Assembly: GCA_021810905.1 (NCBI GenBank)
Contig: JAJZQH010000007.1
Span: forward strand, 134,455 to 175,445
DNA length: 40,991 nt
Source: a bacterium
Lineage (GTDB): Bacteria; UBA10199; 2-02-FULL-44-16; JAAZCA01
Reading direction: 5' to 3'
Shown: one piece after another, positions 2,476 through 40,991 of the stretch
Layout: every line of letters begins with the position of its first letter
Numbering within the stretch: the stretch's first letter is position 1
Position numbers and translations under genes: made by a program
The notes under the pieces: model-generated
What the model saw: only the letters and a program-made list of their open reading frames with translations
What the model was told of the DNA's origin: nothing
Databases searched by the model: none

Positions 2476-4119
2476 TCACTGCTGCCAGCGTGACGGCGGC
2501 TTTTGTACCGCTTCCTTTTCACCCGGTCCCGTCACTTCCTCGATCTGATCCGCTGTCTTCTTTTGTGCCGGCCCAGGAGGCGGCGCCACATACGGCTGCT
2601 GCGCAGGCGGAGGCGGATACGCTCCAGGCGGAGCGGGATACGTCCCTACTGGAGGCGGATAGGTGGCGGGCGGCGGCGTGTAAGCCGGTGCAGGATATGG
2701 CTTCGCCTTGGCCGGCGGTGGCGTATAACTTGGAGCTGGGGCTGGAGCCGGCGCAGGTGCAGGCTGCGCCTTTGCCGCAGGCTTCGCACCTGAAGGAACA
2801 GCCGAGGAACGCGGCTTCACATCTTCGAGCCTCACAGCACCAGGAGGCAACGGTTGCTGATCTTCATAACCACCTGGCAGATCTGACTTACCCGTAGGCG
2901 CCGGAGCGCCGTATCCCGTGGGATATGAAGGATAAGCCGGCGCGGGCCTCGGCTTCGGCTTCGGTTTCGCCGCAGCTGCGGGCGGCGGTGTAGTCTGTGT
3001 TACAGGAGGAGGCGTATATGCGGGCTGCGGCGCAGGAGCCGGCTTTGCCGCTGGCGGCGGAGCCTGGGTCACGGGCGGAGGCGTATACGCGGGCTGCGGC
3101 GCAGGAGCGGGCTTTGCCGCTGGCGGCGGAGCCTGGGTCACGGGCGGAGGTGTATATGCGGGCTGCGGCGCAGGAGCGGGCTTTGCCGCTGGCGGCGGAG
3201 CCCGGGTCACGGGTGGAGGTGTATATGCGGGCTGCGGCGCAGGAGCGGGCTTTGCCGCTGGCGGCGGAGCCTGGGTCACGGGTGGAGGTATATATGCGGG
3301 CTGCGGCGCAGGAGCGGGCTTTGCCGCTGGCGGCGGAGCCTGGGTCACGGGTGGAGGTGTATATGCGGGCTGCGGCGCAGGAGCCGGCTTTGCCGCTGGC
3401 GGCGGAGCCTGCGTCACGGGTGGAGGTGTATATGCGGGCTGCAGCGCAGGAGCCGGCTTTGCCGCTGGCGGCGGAGCCTGCGTCACGGGCGGAGGCGTAT
3501 ACGCGGGCTGCGGCGCAGGAGCGGGCTTTGCCGCTGGCGGCGGAGCCTGCGTCACGGGCGGAGGCGTATACGCGGGCTGCGGCGCAGGAGCGGGCTTTGC
3601 CGCTGGCGGCGGAGCCTGCGTCACGGGCGGAGGCGTATACGCGGGCTGCGGCGCAGGAGCGGGCTTTGCCGCTGGCGGCGGAGCCTGCGTCACGGGTGGA
3701 GGCGTATATGCGGGCTGCGGCGCAGGAGCCGGCTTTGCCGCTGGCGGCGGAGCCTGGGTTACAGGTGGAGGTAGTTGCGCCTTTTTCTTAGGTGCTGCGG
3801 CCGGCGGCGGTGCACTCGGCGGAGGCGTATATGCGGGCTGCTGATAAGGTTGAGGCGGATACGGCGGAGGAGGATACGCCTGCGCAGGCGGCGGATATGC
3901 TGGTGCCGGCTGAGGCGCTACTGCCTGGGGCTGTGCCGCTGATTTCGGCTTGCCCACGTCCTCGAGTCTCACCGCGCCTGGAGGCGTCTGTGCCTGTTCA
4001 ACATAGCCTCCAGGAAGGTCTGATTTCTGCTGAGCATACTGCGCTGATGCGGCTACTGAGATACAAAGGATTGCGGATGCTGCGACGGCCATCGCAACAA
4101 ACATTCGTGCCGATCTCAT
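2476..4119 (-). CDS. Secreted proline-rich repeat protein
   Basis: No family recognised. The start at 4119 is preferred because GGGGG lies five bases upstream and the product begins with a clean signal peptide (MRSARMFVAMAVAAS...ASAQ, cleavage near residue 25); an in-frame ATG 17 codons earlier has no ribosome site. The 547-residue protein is almost all Pro/Ala/Lys/Gln/Tyr. Its centre is eleven copies of a 23-residue unit (YTPPPVTQAPPPAAKPAPAPQPA pattern) plus one degenerate copy. Two non-repetitive blocks, KSDLPGGY-x(7,8)-PPGAVRLEDV, occur once right after the signal peptide and once after the repeat array. The C-terminus (KKTADQIEEVTGPGEKEAVQKPPSRWQQ, 28 residues, split here as ...EEVTGPGE and the rest) is ordinary sequence. 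An extended, periplasm-spanning or wall-associated linker role is inferred from composition only. It sits downstream of the alpha-2-macroglobulin gene on the same strand, 73 bp away. Confidence 0.85.
   Translation of the reverse strand: MRSARMFVAMAVAASAILCISVAASAQYAQQKSDLPGGYVEQAQTPPGAVRLEDVGKPKSAAQPQAVAPQPAPAYPPPAQAYPPPPYPPQPYQQPAYTPPPSAPPPAAAPKKKAQLPPPVTQAPPPAAKPAPAPQPAYTPPPVTQAPPPAAKPAPAPQPAYTPPPVTQAPPPAAKPAPAPQPAYTPPPVTQAPPPAAKPAPAPQPAYTPPPVTQAPPPAAKPAPALQPAYTPPPVTQAPPPAAKPAPAPQPAYTPPPVTQAPPPAAKPAPAPQPAYIPPPVTQAPPPAAKPAPAPQPAYTPPPVTRAPPPAAKPAPAPQPAYTPPPVTQAPPPAAKPAPAPQPAYTPPPVTQAPPPAAKPAPAPQPAYTPPPVTQTTPPPAAAAKPKPKPRPAPAYPSYPTGYGAPAPTGKSDLPGGYEDQQPLPPGAVRLEDVKPRSSAVPSGAKPAAKAQPAPAPAPAPAPSYTPPPAKAKPYPAPAYTPPPATYPPPVGTYPAPPGAYPPPPAQQPYVAPPPGPAQKKTADQIEEVTGPGEKEAVQKPPSRWQQ
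3019..3771. repeat. Tandem array, 11 x 69 bp, inside the proline-rich gene
   Basis: The 69-bp period is directly visible (for example equivalent GTATA positions at 3081 and 3150). Copies differ at a few sites: GGCGTATAC versus GGTGTATAT, and one copy each with T-to-I, Q-to-R or P-to-L substitutions. Because 69 is divisible by three, copy-number change keeps the frame. A twelfth degenerate unit follows at the protein's C-terminal side (below 3019). Confidence 0.95.
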
Positions 4120-4192
4120 AAATCCCCCTTTTGTTCGATTCGATCCTAGCACTTTCTCTAGAAAAGACAAGCCGTTGTCTCACCGCACCAGC

Positions 4193-7100
4193 TTACTCTT
4201 TGATCTCAATCGTACGCGCGCGGCCGCGACCGAAGATTTCGGGCCTGTAGAACTCGAACGCAACCGCTCCAGGCATGAGGAACTTCCCTGCTGTCGTCGC
4301 CCGCACGGGATATTTTATGTGGTACACGCCCGGCGGCACGGCTTCGTCCGACCAGACTATCGAATCGTCGCGCACCTCCTGGTGGCGGAACGCGAAGTTC
4401 ATGCCGTAATCGATCTCGGGAATCACGTCGTCGTATTGCGGCGCCTCGTTCCCCGCATTGCGGGATATCTCGTCGTCGCCGCGGGCCTCGATCTCGGCAG
4501 CGTGAGATGAAGTGGCGAGGTTCATATCTATTGCCTCGAACCCGGCCGGCAGCAGGTCCTGCACCACGACGTAGTTCATCTCCTGCGGCAGCATGATCGT
4601 GATGTGTCCCTTGTAGTTCTCGCCGGACTTGAACTCCGTGAGTGGCTTTGTCTCCTTTACGTCATCCAGCGCATAGTATTCGCGAGAGATGATCAACCCC
4701 TCCTCGCGCGTGGGCGCCTTGTCTGGCGGGAGATAATATTTGAGCACCATGTCATAGTAGAGCGTTCCGTCGCCCTTCTTTTCAACCTTGATCTCCGCCG
4801 GCATCGAGAGCTCCATAAGCTCCTTCATCGGCATCGCGGCGGTCCCCACCTCCGTTAAATTCTCCCTTGAGAAGGATTTTTCGATCAACTCCTTTTTTCC
4901 GACCTGTACGCTTGCAGTGAAGTCGGTATCTTCTTCTTTCGCCACCTGAGCATAAGCGGTGGTGAGCATGGAGACGTAGAGATTGTCCTGCGTGCAGTTG
5001 CAAGGCGCCACCTTCTTGCGATTGAGGATGAAATCCATGGCGCGCGGCACGCTTGGATCGTTCGGATCGGCCGTGAGCAGCGCGAGTCCCGCGAGGGCCG
5101 TGTTTTTCATTGCGCTCGACCAGAAAAATTCGGAAGCGGGCCAACTCATGGAGCGAGGTTCTTGTTTTGCCTCCGCGAGCAGCCTCCCCTTGAGCGCACC
5201 GAGATCCATCGACGCGCCGCCGTTTTTCGCGGCCATGATAAGATACGAGAGTCCGGAGACGGAGAGCTCGCTCAGCTGCGCCTTCCACTCGTTGGCATCG
5301 ATCGTCTCGCGTGACTTGTCGAGCGTCATCGCCCAGAGCCCGTATGCGCGATCGTCCGCGCCCAGGATGTATTTCCCCTCCTTCGTCTTCGCCTTTATCT
5401 TCCCCGCGACAAAACCCTTGAGCTTGACGCGCGCCGCCTCGTCGAACTCTATCCCCTGAGCCTTTGCCATGGCGAGGGCCGCGAGCACCTGAGCGCTTGC
5501 GAAGTAGTCCGTGCCGCTGCTCTCGGGCCAGTAGCGCATGCCGCCGTCGTATTGCTGGAAGGTGGCGAAGAGTTCCTTGATGATCGAATCGATCTGATCG
5601 TCGAGGAGTTCTTTCTTTGCGGAGAGCGACTTCGCCTCTTCGATTTTTTCCTTCGCTATCGGCGCCAGGGCGTCGAAATAGCCTTCACCGAAACGCTCCG
5701 TCATGTCGCGCGCCATGAGCAGCGCCATGAGCGTTGCGGACTTCTGCTCCGAGCACCCCCATGGGAAATAGATGAGATTTCTGAGCGAAGGCGCTGCCGC
5801 GAGCGCGATGGAGGCGCGCATGGTCACGTCCAGCCCGCCCATATTCTCTTCTGTTCCCTTTGGAAGATCCACGGCCTCTCGCTCCGCCGCCTTTGTCATG
5901 CCGGAGGTGGCCACCACCTCGGGCGCATATCGATCCTTCACCGGGATACCCACTTCAAGCGAATCGAGCACTGCCCCCTTGGCGTCCTTCGCGTCTGCAG
6001 TCAGACCGAGCCTGCCGCCTGCGGAGCGGATCGAGACGTCGACGGGGAAGGCCTGTTCGGTATTCGCCGGTATCGAGAAGTCGATATTCTGCGAAGGTTT
6101 GTCGCCCTTGAGCAGGCCGTCGCCGGACACCGTGACCGAGATCGTGCCGCTCACCTTCTCCGCGGTCCTGTTGTTGGCGATGATCTTTGCAGTGAGCTCG
6201 TCTCCCCACGCGGCGAAGCGCGGTAGCGCGGTGCGCACGACTACCGGAAGCGTGCTCATGACCTTCGCCCGCGCGCTGCCTACGAACGTGCCGTCGGTAA
6301 GCGAAAGATTTGCGCCAACGGCGCGCTGGCCCTGCGGCGTCTCCGGAGCAGATTGCGCCAGCTCCGCTTCGAACTCCTTTGTCGTCTTTGATTCCGTGAT
6401 GCCCAGCGCTTCTATCACCCACGTGGTGAGATCGTCCGGCAGCTTGAACGACACCTCCGCCTCACCTTTGTCATCGGTCGTCACGTTCGCGGCGAAGAAC
6501 GCGGTGTCCTTGAATATGCGGCGCCGCTTGCCTGCGGCCAGGCCTCCATCTCCAGCCTTGAGCGAAATCATCGACGACGACGTGATCACGCTGTCCGGCC
6601 TCTGATAATAAAATTTCTTCACGAGATCTGGCAGCTTGTAGTTGAGCAGTTTCAGCACGGATTCGTCGGCAACGCTTACGATCACGTGCGCCGAATGAGG
6701 CTTGCCGTCGGCATCAGTCGTCTTGATGCGCACCTTCACCTCATCGCCTGGACGATAGATCGGCGGCGTGTCCTTCTCGCCCTTGCGGTCCGTGGCGAGC
6801 GCAACGTCGAGGCGCTTGCGCTCAGGCTCGACGCGTAACTCTACGTCGCCGCTGTAGAGGAGCGGCGGGTGTTCCGCGTTGCGCCCCACGTGCGCGACGA
6901 TGCTCACGTAGAGATTCGGTATCATGCCCTCGGCGATCGGAAGCTCGAAATGCGAGGCATTGCCTCCAAGGTCAATCACGCGGTACTCGAGCACGTGGCC
7001 GCGCTGCAGCGCGAGCAATGCCTTCGTGACCGGCACCAGCGATTTGACCAGAATTTTGGCCGTCTCGCCCACCTTGTACGATTCCTTGTCCGCCACCAGC

Positions 7101-18820: not shown

Positions 18821-19094
18821 ATCCAAACCGGAGAAGAAGCAGGGTGTTTTGTGAATGATTGTGCAAAGTCGTGACGATCAAAATCGTTCAGGGGGATGGA
18901 GTGACATTTGTCCATTGATCGATTACTCCCATCATCCCCGCCTATCCCGATTTGATTGCAGTGTAAGGAGGAGGGGGATGTAGAGGGCTTGTTGAAGAGC
19001 GAGGATGTTTGTATTGGTTAGGTGTTCCAGAAATTCTTGGGCTAACAATAAATTGAAAAAGCTGTTCGTAGAAATGCATTTGATTATCTTATTT

Positions 19095-19946
19095 ATGGAC
19101 GAACTCAACAGTTACATTGATTATGTTGTAAATGAAAAAGCGGCTCTTTTTATTGGAGCTGGTTTATCTCGGATATGCGGATGTAAGGGCTGGGATGATA
19201 TTTGCACGAATCTTTATAAAGCATGTGAAGACAAATTGAAAGTGAGTGAATCTGAATTTAGATTAGCAAAACCAGATGAGAAAATGACGTTTGTAAAGAA
19301 AATATTGGATAGTGATGATGGACGGCCGGTTTATCAACACATTCTACGAAATGGACTAAATCCAGACCCGGAACTACTGGTTAAAAAGTATATCCCCCTC
19401 ATTAAATCTATCAGAACGATACATCCTCATCCTAAGATTGTTACTACAAATCCTGACACTTGTTTAAAATTGAGTGGTCAATACAATGATTATTTTGTGT
19501 TTCATAAACTTTGCGATTTAACGTCTCATAATTTTGACGTGCAAAAAGCCATATTTCATATTCATGGTTCACGTGAAGAAACTGATGCCGAGGTGTGGTC
19601 AATACCACAATATCAAGAACGATATTCAGATGCGAAGTTTTGCGAGTTTATTAAACATATTTTTACAAATTACTCGGTATTGTTTCTGGGATATGGATTA
19701 AGGGAAGCTCCAATTTTACGGATAATATCTACCGTGGTTTCAAAATGTCCGCAGCATTATGCCTTGCTTCCATCCGATTCAGAGGTGTTGCCGCAGAAAA
19801 GCATATTTCAAGAAATCTATAAAATATCATTAATAGATTACGGCAATAAAAGTACACTAAGGAACAGACTACAAGAATGGATAAGTTTGAATTTTGATAC
19901 GGTACTGTCTGGCGACGAAACTAATGCCGATAGAAGTAGAATATGA
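19095..19946 (+). CDS. SIR2-domain protein, candidate NADase effector of a defence pair
   Basis: 283 residues consisting of a single SIR2-like Rossmann domain. NAD-binding motifs: ALFIGAGLS (Gly21-Ala-Gly-Leu-Ser25), a GWDDICTNLY helix, VTTNPDT (Thr117-Asp121), the catalytic-type His in FHIHGS (His157), and FLGYGLRE (about 197-204). There are no zinc-binding Cys pairs of protein-deacetylase sirtuins, so it belongs with the defence-associated SIR2_2-type NAD hydrolases (Thoeris ThsA, DSR, SIR2-HerA). I start at ATG 19095 because the SIR2 core begins within 15 residues; frame-compatible ATG 19074 is an alternative, and neither has a strong ribosome site. DNA is markedly AT-rich compared with the rest of the window, a sign of recent transfer. 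The 1092-residue gene starts 19 bp after its stop. Confidence 0.88.
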   Translation: MDELNSYIDYVVNEKAALFIGAGLSRICGCKGWDDICTNLYKACEDKLKVSESEFRLAKPDEKMTFVKKILDSDDGRPVYQHILRNGLNPDPELLVKKYIPLIKSIRTIHPHPKIVTTNPDTCLKLSGQYNDYFVFHKLCDLTSHNFDVQKAIFHIHGSREETDAEVWSIPQYQERYSDAKFCEFIKHIFTNYSVLFLGYGLREAPILRIISTVVSKCPQHYALLPSDSEVLPQKSIFQEIYKISLIDYGNKSTLRNRLQEWISLNFDTVLSGDETNADRSRI

Positions 19947-19965
19947 ATAGGTTAGGAGATAATTT

Positions 19966-22900
19966 ATGAACGACACTTTTTATAAAGACGTATCAGTAAT
20001 TGATGCGGCTTTGTCAGATGTATCGCTTGATAATAAAGATTACGATCGTATTTTGAATCTGATCAGTAATAATTCAATGCTTCGTGACTATTTTTTTACA
20101 CACATTAAGAATGAGCAATGGTTTGATGTAATAAGTCGTAATAGATATTTTGATCCTCAATATGTTAGTATTATAGATGAAGGCGATTTATTATTGATAA
20201 ATGTCTTAGGCTATCTCGAACGCATAGCGATGAATCTCTTGCAACATGCTGGATATGATGAAAAGTTAATGGGTGTTATTAATGAAATAATTAAATATGC
20301 AAAAGACAAACAAGTTAAAAATCCCTATATCTGGCACGAACTATTAATAATCCTGAGCAAAATCCCGTCATATGTAATAGCTAATTATCTGCCAATCGAT
20401 GGCGATTATGGTTTTGATGCGCTTTTGTCGGAGTGTGTAAGTCTTGATCTACCTGGCAACCTAACCATTGTTGATATTGGTGAAAGGTTGTTTCCCATGT
20501 TTATAAATGACGATTCAATGCGTGCATATGCCGATATTGTTGCCAAGATTATTACTGATATCAGGGTTGGCAAAACAAAAAGGACTCTATCAGATAAGAA
20601 TGAAGCCGGCTTAAAAGCTGAATCTTACTGGGTATTAAAAGCGTTTGAAAAGAGCGGTAATGCACTTGCCAAAAAGAGTGAAAGAACAATTTATGCTGTA
20701 GCAAATAATCTTAAGAGGGCCTTAGAATATAATAGGTCCAATAATTCGGTTGATATCAAAAAAGATGATGATGTTTATGAATTATTTGTGTCACGAATTC
20801 AATCGGATGACTTCAGTGATGATCACATAAGTTATAAGAGAGATGAATATATATTTGAGATCAAGAAGTATGCCGGGAAACAGCTTGAGAAATATAATAA
20901 AGAAGAAGACGTTCTAGGATTAATCGGTGTCGAACCTGAACTGTCATGTGTAAAACCAGCGCATGTTAAAGCAATATCGAAGACAGAGTTTGTTTTTCAA
21001 ATTAGGAAATTGATACCTAGTGAGCTGGGTCTTGAATGCACTGAGAGATATGAAGAAAAGTTGGAGTGGTTATATGACAGGTTGTATGAGGACTATTCTC
21101 AAGTATGGTTTAAATCTTTAGCTAGTGGTGGTCGTATTCATGTTCATGACGCAAATGAAGTCTTAGCCATACTTCTTCGAGATATGTTATTGGCTAGAGC
21201 TGAACTTAATCCAAGTAGCTGTAGATGTATAATTGATAAATTCCTATCTGATGAGTATAGATTTCCATTGTTTAAGAAATATGTGCTCTTCTTTGTAAAT
21301 AAATATTGGGATGATGGTTATTCAGATCTGCTTGATACAATCCTTTCCATGCCTAATGTATTACGTGAAGATGCATTTGAGGTTGAGCTATATGACATAT
21401 TGAAAACGCATTATTTGAAATTCTCCACAGAGCAGAATCTCAAAATCAAGTCTCTTATTGATGATATTCCGGATTACTATCGTGATGATGATAAATGTAT
21501 TAATCACTGGAAACTTAAATGGCTCTCCCCTTTAAAAAATAGTGAATATTTCAAAGGTGCTTTTGAGGATGCAAGGGCGAAGTCTGATCTTGAGGATAAG
21601 AAAGAATATGAGCCAGCAAGAGATCCATTTAGGCTTAGGATGATTGCTGGAAAATCATCAATATCTAAGGATGAGCTCATAAATAAACATGAAGCTGAAA
21701 ATCTTGTAGATGAATTCAATAAATTTAAAATAGAGGATCGCTGGGCGGCATTTGACGGTGAACCTGATAGGGAGGGGCTTGGAGATTTACTTAAACAGGC
21801 TGTTGTTGATAATCCAAAATTGTTTTCGGACAAAATTGATCAGTACAAGAAAGCCCCGCCTTATTTTGTGCATCGTATATTGTGGGGATTTAATGAGGCG
21901 TTGAGAGCGCAAAAGCCACTGGACTGGCCTAATATAGTTACATTCTGCTATGCTTACATTGTCGAAAATAAGGCTTTGCTTGCTGATGAAACTGAGACTG
22001 AAGACGCAAAGGTAAAAAATGAATATTCGTGGGCTATTGGTGATGCAGTTGACTTGATAGAGGATGGCTCGAATGCTGATTTATTGCCTAAAGAGTGTTT
22101 TGAGAAAGCAAGTCAGATTTTCGATGAAGCGTCTCAAATAGTTAAGGGCAAGATTGATCCAGAAATCCAAAGAGACGGGATTAATTATGCCTTAAACACT
22201 ACTATGGGAAAGGTTGTAAGATCAAATATGGTATTTGGCCTTAGGGTTGCGAGGGAAACAAAAGTTAAAGAAGAAAATTGGGGACAAAAGAATTATGAAC
22301 GCTACTTTGGAAAAGGCGTTGAGGCTTTTATCTGGTTTGGTCATTACTTCCCTCAATTGCGTTATTTAGATCAGGCATATGCTGAAACCAAATTGCAGGA
22401 TTTAACGGAAAAAACCAACACAGACCATGAGTGGCAAGCCTTTATGGAAGGCTACCTGACTAGTTCAAATATCTATGATGACATATATTTCCTACCGGCA
22501 ATGAGAAAACATTATGAGAAAGCACTTGCCAGTAAAGATTTTGATAAAAAAGATGATGCCAGACTTGTTCATCATATCACTATAGAATATTTACGTGGCA
22601 AAGAATTCCTGGCTGAAACAAACGCAGATGGCCAACAAAGCCTCTTCTGGAAGCTATTACATGAGATTGATGTCCCAGAAAAACATGAAAGGTGGATTAC
22701 AGTTGCAGGTTACTTTTGGTCTATATCACCCAGAACTTTACGGGAGGTCATCACGAATAATGATGTCGAGGAAAAACCATTAAACAGTGAAATTATACAG
22801 CGAATACTGGAGTTCTGGGGATGGACATATGACAAACGAGAAAAAATAAAGCAGCTTCTGGTAGATGATTACAATCATTTTCTGGGTTCCCTAGCCGATC

Positions 22901-23244
22901 TTACAATTTATCTTAATGAGATTGACGATGTAACAGAAAAATGGCTTCTTCTTTCGGCCCCATATTGTGAGCTACAGCACATGTCCAACTTCTTTATCGA
23001 ATATCTGACTGCCTTCCTCGATGATGAAGAAAGTGTAAAAAAGATAGGCAAAATATTCCTCAATATTCTAGATGGAGCTACCCCAACCTTTAGAGACGAT
23101 GACATCCATAGGATTGTAGAAGGATTGTATAAACTTAAGGATAAATACCCTCGGCTTAAGCATGACGCTGACAAAATCTGCAATACCTATGGTGAACGTG
23201 GCCAGCATTTCTTGAAAGAACTCTATTTCAAAAATCAATCCTAA
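19966..23244 (+). CDS. Very large protein of unknown function, partner of the SIR2 gene
   Basis: 1092 residues, ATG 19966 preceded by TAGGAGAT. No known catalytic motif: no Walker A/B (AGKSS near residue 564 lacks the GxxxxGK spacing), no signal peptide, no TM helix. Composition and periodicity suggest an all-helical repeat scaffold, acidic and Tyr/Asp-rich. Near the N-terminus, RDYFFTHIKNEQWFDVISRN, then RYFDP (residues 40-64) resembles the FF-x-HLK-x-WF-x-L...G-x-FDP segment I associate with large helical STAND- or SIR2-linked proteins. C-terminal stretches (ERWITVAGYFWSISPR at about 906-921; IVEGLYKLKDKYPRLKHDADK near 1045) could belong to a DUF4020-like region, but I cannot confirm this. 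It shares the low GC of the SIR2 gene and is 19 bp downstream. I infer a sensor/regulator that controls the SIR2 NADase. Confidence 0.85.
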   Translation: MNDTFYKDVSVIDAALSDVSLDNKDYDRILNLISNNSMLRDYFFTHIKNEQWFDVISRNRYFDPQYVSIIDEGDLLLINVLGYLERIAMNLLQHAGYDEKLMGVINEIIKYAKDKQVKNPYIWHELLIILSKIPSYVIANYLPIDGDYGFDALLSECVSLDLPGNLTIVDIGERLFPMFINDDSMRAYADIVAKIITDIRVGKTKRTLSDKNEAGLKAESYWVLKAFEKSGNALAKKSERTIYAVANNLKRALEYNRSNNSVDIKKDDDVYELFVSRIQSDDFSDDHISYKRDEYIFEIKKYAGKQLEKYNKEEDVLGLIGVEPELSCVKPAHVKAISKTEFVFQIRKLIPSELGLECTERYEEKLEWLYDRLYEDYSQVWFKSLASGGRIHVHDANEVLAILLRDMLLARAELNPSSCRCIIDKFLSDEYRFPLFKKYVLFFVNKYWDDGYSDLLDTILSMPNVLREDAFEVELYDILKTHYLKFSTEQNLKIKSLIDDIPDYYRDDDKCINHWKLKWLSPLKNSEYFKGAFEDARAKSDLEDKKEYEPARDPFRLRMIAGKSSISKDELINKHEAENLVDEFNKFKIEDRWAAFDGEPDREGLGDLLKQAVVDNPKLFSDKIDQYKKAPPYFVHRILWGFNEALRAQKPLDWPNIVTFCYAYIVENKALLADETETEDAKVKNEYSWAIGDAVDLIEDGSNADLLPKECFEKASQIFDEASQIVKGKIDPEIQRDGINYALNTTMGKVVRSNMVFGLRVARETKVKEENWGQKNYERYFGKGVEAFIWFGHYFPQLRYLDQAYAETKLQDLTEKTNTDHEWQAFMEGYLTSSNIYDDIYFLPAMRKHYEKALASKDFDKKDDARLVHHITIEYLRGKEFLAETNADGQQSLFWKLLHEIDVPEKHERWITVAGYFWSISPRTLREVITNNDVEEKPLNSEIIQRILEFWGWTYDKREKIKQLLVDDYNHFLGSLADLTIYLNEIDDVTEKWLLLSAPYCELQHMSNFFIEYLTAFLDDEESVKKIGKIFLNILDGATPTFRDDDIHRIVEGLYKLKDKYPRLKHDADKICNTYGERGQHFLKELYFKNQS

Positions 23245-30508: not shown

Positions 30509-31312
30509 TTACCTGCGCCTGTAGATCGCCAGAAAGTTGGTGTACGATAACATGATCGTCGGGATCACTATTCCGGAAAAACCGTTATAATTGATCAACG
30601 TCGCATCAAATACCGGTTGCCACTTATCCGGATCAAATAAGGCGCGTCCGAACGCCTCGGTATCCGACTGTACGACAAGATAGCCTCCTGGTGCGACGTC
30701 GCGCCCGAGGTTTTCACCGTCCCTCGCAACCTGCGGATCCGGATTCGTCCAGTAGACGATGTCCGCTGAGTTCGGTCGATATATCGCCATACCTCCCATT
30801 GCATAAAATATTCTGGCGGAGATCTCCAAAGGCGCCTCGTCCGTCACGATCATCGAATGATGGGCACGCGCAGCCCAACGCAGCTCTTTCACCAGGGCGC
30901 AGCTTCCCAAGGACGCCAGGACAATTGCCAAGTGCGGCATCAGGTTCGGGCCGTTATCGATGGCCTGGATATCGCCGGGACCACCAGCCCCGCAGAGCAG
31001 GCGGTGCAACGCTTCGAGGCGCGGGTAGCGCAATCGGCCCCTGAGGTAAGCGACGATGCTGTCATAGCCAGGCTCCATATCGAAATAATCGCTGTCGGAA
31101 GCGCTCGTGAGCGGCGGATTTTTTCGCAGGACTTCCAAAACCTCGTCATGACTTACAGTCGGCTCATCCCGAAAAATTGCCGTACCTCGTTCAAAGAGAG
31201 AGACTTCCTCTGCATCCGCTGCTTCACTTTCCGCCGAAAATACGGGATCGTCTTGCGCATCCAGTTCCGACGCTTGTGATGCAACGTATATGAATGGCGT
31301 CCTTACCTGCAT
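30509..31312 (-). CDS. Methyltransferase-like protein
   Basis: 267 residues, ATG 31312 with GGAGGAGTGG upstream. The region about 110-250 looks like a class I SAM-dependent methyltransferase: IQAIDNGPNLMPHLAIVLAS (motif I position, but G-x-G is degenerate), ADIVYWTNPDPQ (motif IV-like), GRDVAPGGYLVVQSDTEAFG (motif VI strand-loop). Activity is therefore uncertain. The N-terminal ~50 residues are acidic (ASELDAQDDPVFSAESEAAD) and may be a diverged version of the N-terminal tag of the 35.7-40 kb genes. It converges on the propeller gene with only 5 bp between stop codons. Confidence 0.65.
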   Translation of the reverse strand: MQVRTPFIYVASQASELDAQDDPVFSAESEAADAEEVSLFERGTAIFRDEPTVSHDEVLEVLRKNPPLTSASDSDYFDMEPGYDSIVAYLRGRLRYPRLEALHRLLCGAGGPGDIQAIDNGPNLMPHLAIVLASLGSCALVKELRWAARAHHSMIVTDEAPLEISARIFYAMGGMAIYRPNSADIVYWTNPDPQVARDGENLGRDVAPGGYLVVQSDTEAFGRALFDPDKWQPVFDATLINYNGFSGIVIPTIMLSYTNFLAIYRRR

Positions 31313-35519: not shown

Positions 35520-35630
35520 TCACGACAGGGATCGCCGATCCCTCACCTTCCGTCCTTCCTGCACAAATGCGAAAGCGCGTCTGTCCCACGACCAGGGAAA
35601 TGAAAAATCCGCTGCCATTGTGGAACTCAT
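35520..35630 (-). pseudogene. Decayed 5' end of a fourth N-terminal-tag gene
   Basis: A 36-codon frame, MSSTMAADFSFPWSWDRR then non-homologous sequence to TGA. Its leader GTGAAACGAAAGGATGCCCG (about 35631-35652) is nearly identical to the leader of the 37510-38781 gene. The first codons match the 35721-37418 gene without gaps (M1, S3, T4, M5, F11, D16 identical). It could still be translated as a small protein because the ribosome site is intact. The remainder of 35434-35720 shows nothing else. Confidence 0.5.
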
Positions 35631-35720
35631 AACGGGCATCCTTTCGTTTCACTGTTTCGGAGAAGGTCCCTATAGGAGCAAAGCCCGCTTGAGAGTGCAA
35701 TAGGATCACGACGAAATGAA

Positions 35721-37418
35721 TCAGCGCGCCTTCTTGTCGTTTTTCTTCACCGGTTCTGGAATGCCCAGATCGCGCAGATACTGCTGACGGCGTCCCGGAT
35801 TCTTGAGGAACTCATACGCCTCCATGACCCCCCGAAACATCGCAGTACAGCGTTCCTTATCAGCGGCTTCATTTTTATCAGGATGCAGCTTGATCACCAG
35901 CGATCGCATCGCGCGCCTGAGCTCACCATCCGTCACCTCCCAGCGCGGGGCTAAACCGAGAACTGAGAAGTAATCCTTCGCTCCCGCCCCTGCAGCTCGG
36001 ACACCCGCTGCTGCGGACGGTCTCTCCTGCGCGCTGTCTTCGGCCCAGACATACTTCCAGATATGGGACGGGATCACACCCGGGTTTCGGCGGTCATAAT
36101 TCTGGAGCTGAAAGGCAAGCAGCCCGTTGAGCTCAGGGATGAAACTCTGCGCCGATTGGCGGAGGACATGCTCCACGTGTCCCTCGTCCGATGCATTCCT
36201 GCCCCACGCACGTCTCTCGAGCAACGTGCCAAAGAGGAGAGAGGTATTTTCGATCGTACCGCCCCACATGGGTGCCGCTATCGCGACGAGATGCAAAGGC
36301 ACCTCCTGCCGCAGCTTCGCGATGCTGTTCTGCAGCCATCTCTTTTTCTCCGGAGACATCCCGTTGATGCAGCGGGCGATCAAGAGTATCGAGAGCAGTG
36401 CTGTCCAATCCTTGTTTTTGATGATCCCGAAGATCATCCCTTCGAAGCCCTCCTGTATCGCGCCATGAGGGAGACACTTCCAGACGCGATCAGGAATCCT
36501 CCTCGGAAATTGCCGGTCATAATCGCAGAGCATCTTCGCAAGGCCCAGCCAGTGAAGATCGGAAAAGAGATCATGACCGATTTCTAGCGCCTGCTCGACC
36601 GCCCCTGTTTCGCCCCCCGGCAGACGTTCAAGCAACGTCTCCATCAAGTCGCATATATCTCCAGTGAAACCACCTTCAAAAGCTCGGAATGAAGACGCCA
36701 GGACGTCAGAAGGGATCGCGCGGCGATGTTCGACGATACGGCCCTGCAGCCATTTCCTTTTTTCATCGGAACCCCTGGAAGAGCGGCCGAAGAGATCGAA
36801 GGCGCTCATCAATTTCTCCCATTGCTTGTTTTCAACGATTTCTCGAAAGCGGGCGGCGACGTCCTCGCGGCTCTTCGCCCTGAGCAGCCACCGGTTGTTG
36901 TTTGCCTCTAGGCATCGGCCTTTGAGCCGCTGCAGCTTGTGCCTCAGGTCATCACCCAGAAAATAGACGAATGCGCTCACGGCCGCCGTGATTGCCACGA
37001 AGTTCACGGCCAGCAGCAGCAGGGGATCCGGCGAGACCGATTCGAACAGGCCGCCTATTCCCAAAAACGCATCGGAGGACGAAGGCGCGCTCCGCGCATG
37101 GGCGTCCCAACCGAAAAGCATTGCGGCGGAGAGCGCAGAGATCGAGGCGGCGACGAGCTGCGGCCGCACCGCTGTTCCCTTTTTTTCCGAAGGAGGAAAT
37201 GCGAGCCGCCGCGTGCGCGCGGCGCGGAACGAGGCAGCGCCCGAGCTCTCGATCGTCCCTCGCAGGCAATAGGAAGAATCCTCGGCCTCAACGGCGGGGA
37301 GTTCATCAACAGCTTCGGGGACGATATCTTCTCCCGCGTCAGTGACGCAGACCTCGGAGAGGGTCGCTGCATCGCTCGCTGGAAGAAATAATAGGCCCTG
37401 CGTCATTGTCGAATTCAT
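35721..37418 (-). CDS. Membrane-anchored protein with C-terminal J domain and N-terminal tag
   Basis: 565 residues. The C-terminus (about 480-550) is a J domain, DYFSVLGLAPRWEVTDGELR then LVIKLHPDKN with the HPD triad intact (His512-Asp514), so it should stimulate a DnaK/Hsp70 ATPase. Two hydrophobic segments near residues 92-112 and 132-153 place it in the membrane. Between them and the J domain are repeated LW/WLQ..I..LR-type helical blocks (KRKWLQGRIVEHRRAIPSDV; KKRWLQNSIAKLRQEVPLHL), an internal duplication of about 130 residues. N-terminus MNSTMTQGLLFLPASDAATL aligns gaplessly with the tags of the next two genes. ATG 37418 has GAGGG nine bases upstream. The partner Hsp70 is not in the window. 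Confidence 0.85.
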   Translation of the reverse strand: MNSTMTQGLLFLPASDAATLSEVCVTDAGEDIVPEAVDELPAVEAEDSSYCLRGTIESSGAASFRAARTRRLAFPPSEKKGTAVRPQLVAASISALSAAMLFGWDAHARSAPSSSDAFLGIGGLFESVSPDPLLLLAVNFVAITAAVSAFVYFLGDDLRHKLQRLKGRCLEANNNRWLLRAKSREDVAARFREIVENKQWEKLMSAFDLFGRSSRGSDEKRKWLQGRIVEHRRAIPSDVLASSFRAFEGGFTGDICDLMETLLERLPGGETGAVEQALEIGHDLFSDLHWLGLAKMLCDYDRQFPRRIPDRVWKCLPHGAIQEGFEGMIFGIIKNKDWTALLSILLIARCINGMSPEKKRWLQNSIAKLRQEVPLHLVAIAAPMWGGTIENTSLLFGTLLERRAWGRNASDEGHVEHVLRQSAQSFIPELNGLLAFQLQNYDRRNPGVIPSHIWKYVWAEDSAQERPSAAAGVRAAGAGAKDYFSVLGLAPRWEVTDGELRRAMRSLVIKLHPDKNEAADKERCTAMFRGVMEAYEFLKNPGRRQQYLRDLGIPEPVKKNDKKAR

Positions 37419-37509
37419 CGGAATATACCCTCACCTCATCGCATCTAGTCCTGCGTCGCCAGATCTCGAAACAATCTTGTTCTCTCTGAGCAAATGAAAA
37501 TCAACGAGA

Positions 37510-38781
37510 CTAGCCAACCTTTGCGTCTCTCGACACCACCACCGGCTCGTCGGCCGCATCCACCTCGCGATACGGAGCGCCCACCCGCACCTTCTGTCCC
37601 TGCGGCTCGATTCTGAAGCGCGTCTGTTCCTCGATCAGGATTCGCACTCTCTCCTTGCCCATCTCCGATTGCATATTGTCGAGGAGCCGCCGCGCCTTCT
37701 CGTTTTTCGCCTCCACCAGCGTGAGGAGCCACGCTATCACGGAGCTGTTGCCGCGCTTCGCGAACCATTCCACCATTTCCTCGATCCCGTCGGCATCGAT
37801 CCACTTCGGGTGCCAATCGAGCTTGATCGGGGCGATGAATTCCGCTGAATTCGCCAGCTCGTTATGCTCCGCGATGATCTGAAGGAGTCTGGCATTCATG
37901 GGTGATTGTGCGGCGGAATCGACAAAGGGCGCCAGCATCTGCGGCCCCATGAGTTTCCTGAAATCGTAGACGCGGCCGTCTTCTTCGCTCACGACTCTGG
38001 AACCCATTGCGAAGGCCCTTTGAAAGTCCTCCATCAATTGCACAACGCTACAGCCCCTGAAGCGATATGGATCGGCATATAGCTTCACGGAATCGTACCA
38101 CTCATACGCCTCGCGCTGAGAAAGCCTCCCGGTCAATCCGGTCAATGTTTCGCGAATGACTCCGCTCCCGATTTCCTCGGCCGACTCGAAGAGCTTTCCC
38201 AAACCATACAAGAGAAACAGGCCAATGAGAATCGCGAAAGCGACGAGGCCTCCTCCAGGGCCATACACTATGGTCGGAATCCCCACGGCCAGCGTCAGAC
38301 CGCCGCCCACGGTATATTTCACGAGTTTGCGCTTAGCCGCTTCACGCCCGACCAGCGCGTCCAGGTTCTGATATTCAGCGCCCTGATAGATGATGGGTGA
38401 GAGCCCGCTCGATCGGACCACGAGCGCCTCCTTGCGCTGGGCAGGCACGATCGCCGTTGTGAACGCATCAGTCGCTGACGGAGATGCGTCCTCGTGAGTC
38501 CCCGAAGGCTCGATCGGAATTCCGGTCGCGCTCATAAACCTCGTCCCGCCAAAGGCCCACGGATAGATCCCCTCGATCGCGACATCGCCGCGGCCGGAGC
38601 AGGATTCAACCTTCGACGCCAGGGCGTATTCGCTCGATGGCGCCACTGCGGAGATAGCCTCGCTGCCCTCGCAGCCCTCCTGCACCAACTCATCCGCCGC
38701 GTCGTTGACGCCGGGGTCGGACATGGCAGCCGCGTCGCTCACTGGATAGAAAGTCAAATTCAGAGACGTTCCGACGCTCAT
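37510..38781 (-). CDS. Hypothetical two-TM protein with N-terminal tag
   Basis: 423 residues, family not recognised. ATG 38781 is preferred over the ATG nine bases upstream because AAAGGA is eight bases before it (and abuts the earlier one), and because it makes the tag align gaplessly with its paralogues: MSVGTSLNLTFYPVSDAAAM then SDPGVNDAAD. After an acidic, Ser-rich low-complexity region, a hydrophobic pair at about 163-200 (GGGLTLAVGIPTIVYGPGGG, LVAFAILIGLFLLYGLGKLF) forms a hairpin or one long TM region. The C-terminal ~210 residues are soluble and helical (LRETL.., RLLQIIAEHNELANSAEFIA, ARRLLDNMQSEMGKERVRIL), ending in a beta-rich basic tail. Confidence 0.8.
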   Translation of the reverse strand: MSVGTSLNLTFYPVSDAAAMSDPGVNDAADELVQEGCEGSEAISAVAPSSEYALASKVESCSGRGDVAIEGIYPWAFGGTRFMSATGIPIEPSGTHEDASPSATDAFTTAIVPAQRKEALVVRSSGLSPIIYQGAEYQNLDALVGREAAKRKLVKYTVGGGLTLAVGIPTIVYGPGGGLVAFAILIGLFLLYGLGKLFESAEEIGSGVIRETLTGLTGRLSQREAYEWYDSVKLYADPYRFRGCSVVQLMEDFQRAFAMGSRVVSEEDGRVYDFRKLMGPQMLAPFVDSAAQSPMNARLLQIIAEHNELANSAEFIAPIKLDWHPKWIDADGIEEMVEWFAKRGNSSVIAWLLTLVEAKNEKARRLLDNMQSEMGKERVRILIEEQTRFRIEPQGQKVRVGAPYREVDAADEPVVVSRDAKVG

Positions 38782-38946
38782 ATCGGGCATCCTTTCGTTT
38801 CAGTGTCTCGAACCTCGATTGCCTTCAACCCATAGCCCTGAATCTCTTCGCGCCATTCCCCGTCGTGCTGCTGGTGGGGGCGGAATCCACTCGAGGTCTT
38901 TATCCGTCGATTTCGTTCTCCTTGACCGGTTCTGAAATCATGACGT

Positions 38947-40008
38947 TCAATTGGTCTTTCTCGACGAGCCCGCAGAGGAGCCGAACATCCTTGCGAGTTT
39001 CGCCTGAGCCCTGAGCAGCTTCTGCACCGAGGGAGAAAAGGCCCCGCTCACGCTGAAAAAGATCTCCCTGCAGTCGGCTTCCGTGATTTCGTCATGCGCT
39101 GCATGAGTGTATCTGAACAGACCGTCAGCGTTCATCTCATTCCGGTACCAGAGGTCCAGAGCGATGCATTTCAATATTTCACCGCGGACGTCCGGATCCC
39201 TTTCAAAACAAAACCTCTCAAAGAGAGCAGAGAAGATAGGGATCACATAAGGCCCTCCCCTGTCTATCTGCCTGTAATCGCCGGTGGCATCATGAAAAAG
39301 TTCGAAGAGATTTCGAATGGCGACTCGACGCACGAAGGGATCGGGATCTTTCGTGCACGCGATGAAGACGTCGCGGAGGTGTTCGTCAAAGAGATGCTCG
39401 CGCCACGGATGATTGAAGAGGATGCCGACGAGCTCATCCGCGAGCCAATCCTGTGCTACCCTCTCCTGCTCGCGGGGGTCCAGCGAGCCGGTTTCAATTC
39501 GACCGGTCTCATATCGATAGAAGAGGCGATGCCTGAGTCGTTCGTACATGTCGCCTGAGAGCTCCCGGATCGTTTTCGGCACTTCGGCGATGATCGCCGG
39601 TATGGCATCGGCTGCGCTGCGCCCGCGGGCACACTTCTCGCAAAGGACCTCGAGCGATCCGGTCCCGCCCTTGAGCAACTCCTCGTCTGCCTGCAATAAA
39701 AGAGAGACAATTTCATCCGGTCCACTCCTCGATGAAGCCCTGGCCTTATCTGTGCTCGGGACAAAGAGCTCGTTTCGAATCGGATATCCCTCGAATGTCA
39801 TTTGCGCTCTCAGCGGATTTTGAGCATCCATGGTGAAATCATCCTCGATCAAACCCTCCTCACGCGCCCCAAATTCAAGCCCGATGAAAGATCCGTCCGT
39901 TCCCGTATATTCCGACGCTTCCGCCGCGTCGTTGACGCCGGGGTCGGACATGGCGGCCGCATCGCTCGCGGGATGGAATGTCATATTCAAGGTTAATGCG
40001 CCGGTCAC
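38947..40008 (-). CDS. HEAT-like repeat protein with N-terminal tag
   Basis: 353 residues from a GTG at 40008. AAGGAGG six bases upstream and the gapless alignment of the tag (MTGALTLNMTFHPASDAAAM then SDPGVNDAAE) both decide this start; the frame stays open 51 codons further upstream but without a ribosome site. No TM helix. The C-terminal half looks like helical HEAT/ARM-type repeats (DEHLRDVFIACTKDPDPFVR, RVAIRNLFELF; FERDPDVRGEILKCIALDLW), a protein-binding scaffold. The last residues are basic and Ser-rich. DNA of the tag is 35/35 identical to the 37510 gene over 39920-39954, while the rest of the proteins is unrelated. Confidence 0.82.
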   Translation of the reverse strand: MTGALTLNMTFHPASDAAAMSDPGVNDAAEASEYTGTDGSFIGLEFGAREEGLIEDDFTMDAQNPLRAQMTFEGYPIRNELFVPSTDKARASSRSGPDEIVSLLLQADEELLKGGTGSLEVLCEKCARGRSAADAIPAIIAEVPKTIRELSGDMYERLRHRLFYRYETGRIETGSLDPREQERVAQDWLADELVGILFNHPWREHLFDEHLRDVFIACTKDPDPFVRRVAIRNLFELFHDATGDYRQIDRGGPYVIPIFSALFERFCFERDPDVRGEILKCIALDLWYRNEMNADGLFRYTHAAHDEITEADCREIFFSVSGAFSPSVQKLLRAQAKLARMFGSSAGSSRKTN

Positions 40009-40137
40009 GCAAGTCCTCCTTAAGCCCAATTTCTCATGACTCCTTATCGGAGGTTCGTCTGATTTGTTGCGCGTTATTTTCACCCAGATCCGACAAGGAG
40101 AAAAGGGGGGATAGGTGAAAAGAGGTTGGCAAGGACG

Positions 40138-40220
40138 CGTTACCCACAAGTCCTTCATCATCCGCCCGCCCTGCTACGCGAGAGGCTCGCGGCCGGACGA
40201 TGAAGGACTTATGGATAACG
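40138..40220. repeat. REP-like palindromic element at the 3' end of the HNH gene
   Basis: The left arm CGTTACCCACAAGTCCTTCA + TC (40138-40159) and right arm GATGAAGGACTTATGGATAA + CG (40199-40220) are inverted copies, 20 of 22 matching. Between them lies CGCGAG-AGG-CTCGCG (40177-40191). It covers the HNH stop codon (TAA, 40209-40211) and could also act as a bidirectional terminator. Confidence 0.7.
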
Positions 40221-40991
40221 CTTCTGATCTCCAAACACGGCCTTCATCGCCAACTGATTATGTGCGTGGCAGAGGAGGCGGATATTCATCGGATCGTTCG
40301 AGCTCCCGCCTTTTGCAAACGGCCGCACATGATCGAATTGTAAAAACCCGCGTGCATCGCATCGCTTGCCATCAGGCGCAACGTACTGGCATCTGCCCTG
40401 ATCGCGTTGCCAGACCAGGTCCTTCACGCGCTGCGGGATGTATCGTGCATGCTGATGGTCGGACTTCTGCGGCCGAACCCTTGGAGCGTTCCTCATTGCC
40501 TTACGCTCGATCTTCTTTTCCGGGTCTTTCTTTTCGAGCAGCACATTGAGCGCCTCATCGACGATGTCTTCGAGCTTCGCGGCGGGATACTTATGCCGAA
40601 GCAACTGTTTTGCGCGCTCGATCTTGTTTCTGAGTTCCTCGCTCCCGGTAAACTGAAATTTCACGCGCTGTTCAGAGAGGGGCGAGATCGCATCGCGCCT
40701 CGCCGGGTTCTCCGGAGGCGAATAAAGTATGTTCACATCGCTGCATCGTACCACATGAGTCTGCTCCAGTTCCGGGCTCGACAGTGCATTGCATGGGGAA
40801 CTTGCGCCGGCGCAAGTCGGAGTCGGGAGATTGCGAATCATGTCCGGCACATCAGGCATGGGTGCATATTCGGCCCTCATCCTTTCAACATCTCGTTTTG
40901 ATTTGAAGGCTGCACGCCTCAGCAGCTCTTCATGATTCTCTTCGGTCAATAGAGGCGATAATATGTTGATCGCCGTCAGATTCACTTTTCC
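40209..40991 (-). CDS. HNH endonuclease domain protein (5' end outside window)
   Basis: The C-terminal ~60 residues carry an HNH nuclease domain: Cys in GRCQYVAPDGKRCDARG, then LQFDHVRPFAKGGSSNDPMN and IRLLCHAHNQLA (D-H, N and H of the HNH signature). The middle part (VKFQFTGSEELRNKIERAKQ, LLRHKYPAAKLEDIVDEALN, VLLEKKDPEKK) matches the usual linker of a family of HNH proteins common in deltaproteobacteria. The family normally has ~150 more N-terminal residues, and the frame runs off the window, so I treat it as 5'-truncated; the GTG at 40985 is unlikely to be the true start. Targets unknown. Its stop codon lies within a palindromic element. Confidence 0.85.
   Translation of the reverse strand, partial: GKVNLTAINILSPLLTEENHEELLRRAAFKSKRDVERMRAEYAPMPDVPDMIRNLPTPTCAGASSPCNALSSPELEQTHVVRCSDVNILYSPPENPARRDAISPLSEQRVKFQFTGSEELRNKIERAKQLLRHKYPAAKLEDIVDEALNVLLEKKDPEKKIERKAMRNAPRVRPQKSDHQHARYIPQRVKDLVWQRDQGRCQYVAPDGKRCDARGFLQFDHVRPFAKGGSSNDPMNIRLLCHAHNQLAMKAVFGDQKRYP

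What the first reader, a model, noticed from the sequence alone, without database searches (positions are those of the whole stretch)
35520..40008. Unrelated proteins sharing a gapless N-terminal ~31-residue tag
Seen: MSVGTSLNLTFYPVSDAAAM.., MTGALTLNMTFHPASDAAAM.. and MNSTMTQGLLFLPASDAATL.. align without gaps (consensus F-x-P-x-S-D-A-A-x-[ML]-S), then diverge into a two-TM protein, a HEAT-like protein and a J-domain membrane protein. It is not a Sec or Tat signal: no basic n-region or hydrophobic core. A modular tag on diverse bodies suggests a sorting or secretion signal (for example a type III-like N-terminal signal) or a recombination-driven gene family.
Basis: partly seen in the sequence, partly recalled or inferred. 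Interest (0 to 1): 0.78.

Follow-up and report, generated by a model that had tools for sequence, protein, structure and literature searches.

The report
Shared N-terminal tag on unrelated proteins
Three neighbouring genes of an uncultured bacterium begin with the same short protein tag but continue into unrelated proteins, and because the genome also encodes a type III secretion machine the tag is most likely (not proven) an export signal passed from gene to gene by recombination.

Summary
Genes g1 (35721-37418), g2 (37510-38781) and g3 (38947-40008), all minus strand, share a gapless ~31-residue N-terminus; their alignment scores were never reached in 200,000 shuffles, and their bodies show no sequence similarity. 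Between g2 and g3 the tag DNA is 85-93% identical over codons 11-31, against about 30% upstream of the start codon and past the tag, so only this block was duplicated or converted. The exact tag occurs nowhere else: not in this genome, its phylum relatives, GTDB contigs or viral contigs. What recurs is its style. About 22 mostly lineage-specific proteins in a 0.9-Mb sample start with a K/R-free, non-Sec N-terminus, about 5.7-fold above four comparison genomes. All four known members of the g2 body family, across three taxonomic families, have such N-termini with different sequences. A sister genome has a second adjacent pair sharing another tag on unrelated bodies, one a SET domain. The genome encodes a non-flagellar type III secretion apparatus without a recognisable dedicated secretin. 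Best reading: an N-terminal export signal, most likely for that apparatus, spread by terminal reassortment. Export was not shown, and the Ser/Thr/Pro composition argument proved weak.

The parts
38947..40008 (-). g3, 353 aa, GTG start; helical, marginally HEAT-like body
39916..40008 (-). tag of g3 (codons 1-31)
37510..38781 (-). g2, 423 aa; hydrophobic segment about residues 168-200 and a confidently predicted helical C-terminal domain (about residues 222-388)
38689..38781 (-). tag of g2 (codons 1-31); codons 11-31 are 85-93% identical in DNA to g3
35721..37418 (-). g1, 565 aa; predicted TM about residues 128-156, helical middle, C-terminal J domain
37326..37418 (-). tag of g1 (codons 1-31), older copy, 67-76% DNA identity to the others in codons 11-31
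35778..35975 (-). J domain of g1 (residues 482-547)
   Evidence: PF00226 4.8e-12
30509..31312 (-). unknown 267-aa protein (MQVRTPFIYVASQASELDAQDDP...), weakly similar N-terminus (gapless score 18 to g2 and g3), probably not a copy of the tag

Best explanation
The tag is a short, disordered N-terminal export-type signal on lineage-specific proteins, most likely recognised by the genome's non-flagellar, FliO-containing type III secretion apparatus. Newly made g1-g3 would be engaged through the K/R-free ~25 residues and the acidic linker behind them by the sorting platform and export gate (SctQ-SctL-SctN, then SctV/SctU), and the bodies (J domain, helical domains, membrane segment) would act outside the cytoplasm. 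New substrates arise when the 5' coding end of one substrate gene is copied onto a neighbouring body (terminal reassortment). Shown: shared tag, unrelated bodies, tag-limited DNA homology, apparatus genes, K/R-free style kept in homologues of other families. Inferred: that the tag is a secretion signal, that the T3SS reads it, and where the bodies act.
For: Gapless tag far beyond chance on bodies without similarity. DNA homology confined to the tag. Tag region predicted disordered in g2, pLDDT about 30. Non-flagellar T3SS export apparatus: SctV over its equivalog cut-off while FlhA is below its own; SctJ, L, N, Q, R, S, T, FliO, FliJ-like and LcrH-like chaperones in one locus; SctU. K/R-free non-hydrophobic N-termini: 27/522 against 7/734 in four comparison samples, p 9e-6, and above internal windows of the same proteome, p 0.0018; enriched near sctV, p 0.006. 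All four g2-family proteins from three taxonomic families have this property with different sequences. A second adjacent pair sharing a different tag in the sister genome G003, one body a SET domain. In the neighbour scan the other short N-termini shared by unrelated bodies were mostly known export signals (lipobox, prepilin) or receiver domains.
Against: No export data. The exact tag is found only three times, in one cluster. Ser/Thr/Pro in the K/R-free N-termini (25.4%) is hardly above K/R-free internal windows (23.2%), and acidic residues are not depleted, unlike published type III signals (PMC2669295). Unknown proteins next to the LcrH-like chaperones, the likeliest T3SS substrates, carry K/R early. 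No SctC over its cut-off. Some K/R-free N-termini are on a sigma-70-like protein and an aminotransferase. G034 has SctV but only 1 of 296 such N-termini.
Confidence: 0.45

Rival explanations
1. The shared tag is only a by-product of local recombination: tandem duplication or gene conversion of a 5' coding end among adjacent lineage-specific genes, keeping a good translation start but carrying no trafficking function.
For: Exactly three copies, all adjacent; a 35-nt exact DNA match between g2 and g3; no other genome has the tag.
Against: Does not explain why homologues of g2 in other families keep a K/R-free N-terminus of different sequence, nor the genome-wide excess of such N-termini. Between g2 and g3 amino-acid changes in codons 11-30 are fewer than silent ones per site (dN 0.07, dS 0.26), which hints at constraint, although the sites are few.
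Confidence: 0.3
2. The tag is a docking peptide for something other than the T3SS, for example a chaperone, a membrane scaffold or another secretion system.
For: Composition-only signals are not specific to T3SS; the T3SS found has no recognisable secretin; a T2SS locus is also present.
Against: No contractile sheath gene in the genome or its three family members, which speaks against phage-tail-like injection. K/R-free N-termini are enriched near sctV. Type VI secretion, Tad pili and microcompartments were not tested.
Confidence: 0.13
3. g1, g2 and g3 are one very diverged family, homologous over their whole length, and the tag is simply its conserved end.
For: The bodies of g2 and g3 are predicted mostly helical and g3 is marginally HEAT-like; g2 resembles helical-repeat proteins only at non-significant scores.
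Against: Tag silent-site divergence between g2 and g3 is only 0.26-0.40 while the bodies are at random similarity (z 0.3), which ordinary whole-gene divergence cannot produce. g2's body family is found with other N-termini.
Confidence: 0.12

Closest known systems
Terminal reassortment of type III effectors (Stavrinides, Ma and Guttman 2006, as cited in PMC7555288 and PMC2669295)
   Same: Existing secretion N-terminus joined to other bodies by rearrangement; N-terminal position; a type III apparatus in the same genome.
   Different: Described for pathogens with effectors shown to be secreted; here the donor, the machine's substrates and secretion are all unproven, and upstream DNA was not carried along in g1-g3.
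Myxococcus needleless T3SS* (PMC3459982, PMC12248157, PMC12075869)
   Same: Non-flagellar export apparatus with FliO in the locus and no recognisable secretin of its own.
   Different: Here the locus also has LcrH/SycD-like chaperones behind unknown proteins; a Tad/Kil partner was not looked for; no phylogeny of the apparatus was built.
Prepilin and lipoprotein signal sequences
   Same: The familiar case of a conserved N-terminus on unrelated bodies; recovered by the same neighbour scan.
   Different: The tag has no basic n-region, no hydrophobic core, and no lipobox or prepilin motif.

Membership tests
Type III secreted substrate (effector) | Secreted in a T3SS-dependent way | not testable with these tools
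   needs an experiment
Type III secreted substrate (effector) | A type III export apparatus in the same genome | tested here: met
Type III secreted substrate (effector) | Non-cleaved, disordered N-terminal ~25 residues that are not a Sec signal | tested here: met
   no K/R and no hydrophobic core; pLDDT about 30 over the tag of g2; non-cleavage itself not testable
Type III secreted substrate (effector) | Ser/Thr/Pro enrichment and depletion of acidic residues in the first 25 residues (PMC2669295) | tested here: inconclusive
   Ser/Thr/Pro 25.4% against 15.8% proteome-wide but 23.2% in K/R-free internal windows; acidic residues not depleted
Type III secreted substrate (effector) | Genes near T3SS components | tested here: inconclusive
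   the K/R-free class is enriched near sctV, 5 of 28 genes, p 0.006, but g1-g3 themselves lie on another contig
Terminal reassortment | Shared N-terminus on non-homologous bodies with block-limited DNA homology | tested here: met
Needleless (Myxo-type) T3SS | No secretin SctC, FliO in the locus | tested here: met
   no SctC over cut-off, best secretin lies among T2SS genes; FliO 55.7 bits over a 55.25 cut-off; basal tree position not tested
Contractile injection system cargo | Contractile sheath gene (PF04984) in the genome | tested here: not met
   none in own genome or its three family members
Sec/Tat or lipoprotein signal | Basic n-region, hydrophobic core, cleavage site or lipobox | tested here: not met
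   no K/R before residue 57 in g2 and no hydrophobic core in its first 60 residues

The most novel reading that the evidence does not exclude
The K/R-free, acidic-tailed N-termini mark the unknown substrate repertoire of an early-branching, secretin-less T3SS that is present almost throughout this uncultured deltaproteobacterial class, with substrates evolving by swapping their 5' ends; this would give a sequence handle on the effectors of needleless T3SS in general.
Probability: 0.25. Interest if true: 0.8.

Novelty: new variant of a known kind. Interest (0 to 1): 0.52.

Why it matters
Needleless, FliO-containing type III apparatuses help Myxococcus lyse prey, and a comparable apparatus appears almost class-wide in the uncultured lineage studied here, but the papers read here speak only of potential T3SS effectors. 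A recognisable N-terminal signal class with terminal reassortment would make a substrate list directly testable, and would show that signal swapping, known from pathogens, also operates in other bacteria.

Tried and rejected
Genome-wide spread of this exact tag: rejected. Occurrence in public genomes or viral contigs: none; no phage homologue of g2. Shared promoter or upstream region of g1-g3: rejected, upstream identity 22-32%. Full-length homology: no signal. Flagellum instead of T3SS: rejected, a single FHIPEP that is SctV over its equivalog cut-off. Phage-tail-like injection: no sheath gene. G002 as a T3SS-negative control: it lacked FHIPEP but has SctJ and SctU, so its SctV is probably missing from the assembly. 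Simple Ser/Thr/Pro argument for a type III signal: weakened by my own control. Fold searches with the g2 model: no significant match; the g3 model was too poor to use. The second genome-contig scan found only the two class-level g2 relatives already in hand.

Full report
CHECK OF THE OBSERVATION. The three minus-strand genes are open and score as coding: g1 37418-35721 (565 aa), g2 38781-37510 (423 aa) and g3 40008-38947 (353 aa, GTG start behind AAGGAGG). Their first ~31 residues align without gaps, with 11 invariant columns of 35. Gapless BLOSUM62 scores are 54, 63 and 110; none of 200,000 residue shuffles reached them, and the best unrelated N-terminus among the other sampled proteins scored 23-24. 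After the tag there is nothing in common: pairwise BLASTP of the bodies gives only noise, and body z-scores are 0.8, -0.7 and 0.3 against N-terminal z-scores of 11.3, 9.0 and 16.7.

WHAT THE DNA SAYS. Between g2 and g3, DNA identity is 0.85-0.93 from nt 31 to nt 93 and 0.60 in the first 30 nt. It is 0.27-0.32 in the 120 nt upstream of the start codons and 0.23-0.37 beyond codon 31. g1 is an older copy (0.67-0.76 in the same block). Silent-site divergence in the g2/g3 tag is only 0.26-0.40, so two whole genes that separated at that time could not have bodies at random similarity. A recombination event (transfer or conversion of the 5' coding end, or replacement of the body) is the simplest account. 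The upstream region was not carried along.

HOW WIDE IS THE TAG. A profile of the tag finds these three places in the own genome and otherwise only a chance-level match, nothing convincing in the phylum or further relatives, none in the GTDB contig scan and none in viral contigs. The window ends at the end of contig C19, so the cluster may be truncated.

A WIDER STYLE. Genes called in about 905 kb of the genome include an unusual class: no Lys/Arg in residues 2-36, no hydrophobic core, then an Ala/Asp/Glu-rich stretch. Of 698 proteins of at least 100 aa, 31 qualify, and 22 remain after I removed apparent housekeeping or exported proteins by eye. For proteins of at least 200 aa the rate is 27/522 against 7/734 in four other genome samples (odds ratio 5.7, p 9e-6), and twice the rate of internal windows of the same proteome (5.2% against 2.5%, p 0.0018). 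The class is enriched around sctV (5 of 28 genes, p 0.006) and its members tend to be adjacent (p 0.002). Cautions: the adjacency count includes the trio itself; the sctV neighbourhood is where I first noticed the class, so that p-value is not independent; and Ser/Thr/Pro content (25.4%) is hardly above that of K/R-free internal windows (23.2%), so it adds little.

SUPPORT FROM HOMOLOGUES. The g2 body has one paralogue (contig C9, also near a contig end) and two relatives in other taxonomic families of the class, whose contigs are deposited as Deltaproteobacteria metagenome-assembled genomes. All four proteins are K/R-free for the first 39-77 residues although their N-terminal sequences differ; in the sampled relatives G002, G003 and G034 the property has a frequency of about 0.7% (5 of 747). 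A property kept while the sequence changes is what a signal read by composition would show. In sister genome G003 two adjacent genes (L129:1543-3639 and 3883-4722) share another N-terminus (57% identity over 72 residues) on unrelated bodies; the second body is a SET domain (6.6e-12). A scan of genes at most five apart for similar N-termini on unrelated bodies returned, besides these two clusters, mainly lipoprotein and prepilin signals, receiver domains and a probable dinucleotide-binding pair (the naming of those pairs is by eye).

THE MACHINE. The genome has one FHIPEP protein, SctV by NCBIfam (792.7 bits over a 692.25 cut-off; the FlhA model stays below its own cut-off). A locus on contig C15 holds SctJ, SctL, SctN, two SctQ/FliM/FliN-like proteins, a FliJ-like protein, FliO, SctR, SctS and SctT, plus three LcrH/SycD-like TPR proteins, two of which follow unknown proteins of 371 and 355 aa. 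Several of these score below the curated cut-offs and some score as well with flagellar as with injectisome models, which fits an early-branching system but was not tested by a tree. SctU is on contig C2. No SctC passes its cut-off, and the best secretin lies among T2SS genes. FHIPEP is found in 43 of the 45 other genomes of the class that were searched. FliO in the locus and the missing secretin recall the Myxococcus needleless T3SS* (PMC3459982, PMC12248157), which is needed for prey lysis and is proposed to work with effectors (PMC12075869).

MECHANISM AND CONFIDENCE. Most likely the tag is an N-terminal export signal, read by composition and disorder, for this T3SS, and g1-g3 are candidate substrates made by terminal reassortment, a process described for type III effectors (PMC7555288). 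Shown: modularity, block-limited DNA homology, apparatus, style conservation. Inferred: secretion, the identity of the machine, the function of the bodies. Against: the presumptive substrates beside the LcrH-like chaperones carry K/R early; some K/R-free N-termini are on a sigma-70-like protein and an aminotransferase; without a secretin it is unclear that anything leaves the cell; G034 has a T3SS but few such N-termini. I give 0.45 to this reading, 0.30 to recombination without trafficking function, 0.13 to another docking system and 0.12 to remote full-length homology.

NOVELTY. Terminal reassortment and type III signals are known; a candidate signal class in this uncultured lineage, whose T3SS resembles the early-branching type, would be a new variant. 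It is moderately interesting now, and would be much more so if export were shown.

Noticed in passing
window 19005-23244 (+): Two-gene unit: a SIR2-like protein (PADLOC Dsr1 1.2e-41, first part of the model) followed by a 1092-aa protein matching the rest of the Dsr1 model (1.7e-72); looks like a split DSR1-type defence system.
   Followed up: partly
L129:1543-4722 (sister genome G003): Two adjacent genes share a 72-residue N-terminus (57% identical) and very similar 25 nt upstream, on unrelated bodies; the second carries a SET domain.
   Followed up: partly
L042:17579-18979 and contig C18:19062-20744, next to sctV: Two tandem paralogues with a nearly identical ~105-residue K/R-poor N-terminus and HEAT-repeat bodies beside sctV.
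   Followed up: partly
contig C20:19160-22243 and L075:7344-10061: Two large proteins (1027 and 905 aa) about 25 kb apart share a Cys-rich N-terminus (40% over 67 residues) with little similarity beyond.
   Followed up: no
L042:8999-9928: Sigma-70-like protein with a K/R-free acidic N-terminus, the kind of N-terminus otherwise seen on orphans here.
   Followed up: no
window 40134-40224: 36-nt inverted repeat (86% complementary, 19-nt loop) between g3 and the HNH gene; REP-like.
   Followed up: no
window 2476-4170 (-): Protein built of many copies of a Pro-rich unit (TQAPPPAAKPAPAPQPAYTPPPV).
   Followed up: no
contig C9:72714-106866: Partial Rhs-like cores (MVYYIDDHLGSTALVTDSNG...) with shared 5' parts and different 3' tails.
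   Followed up: no
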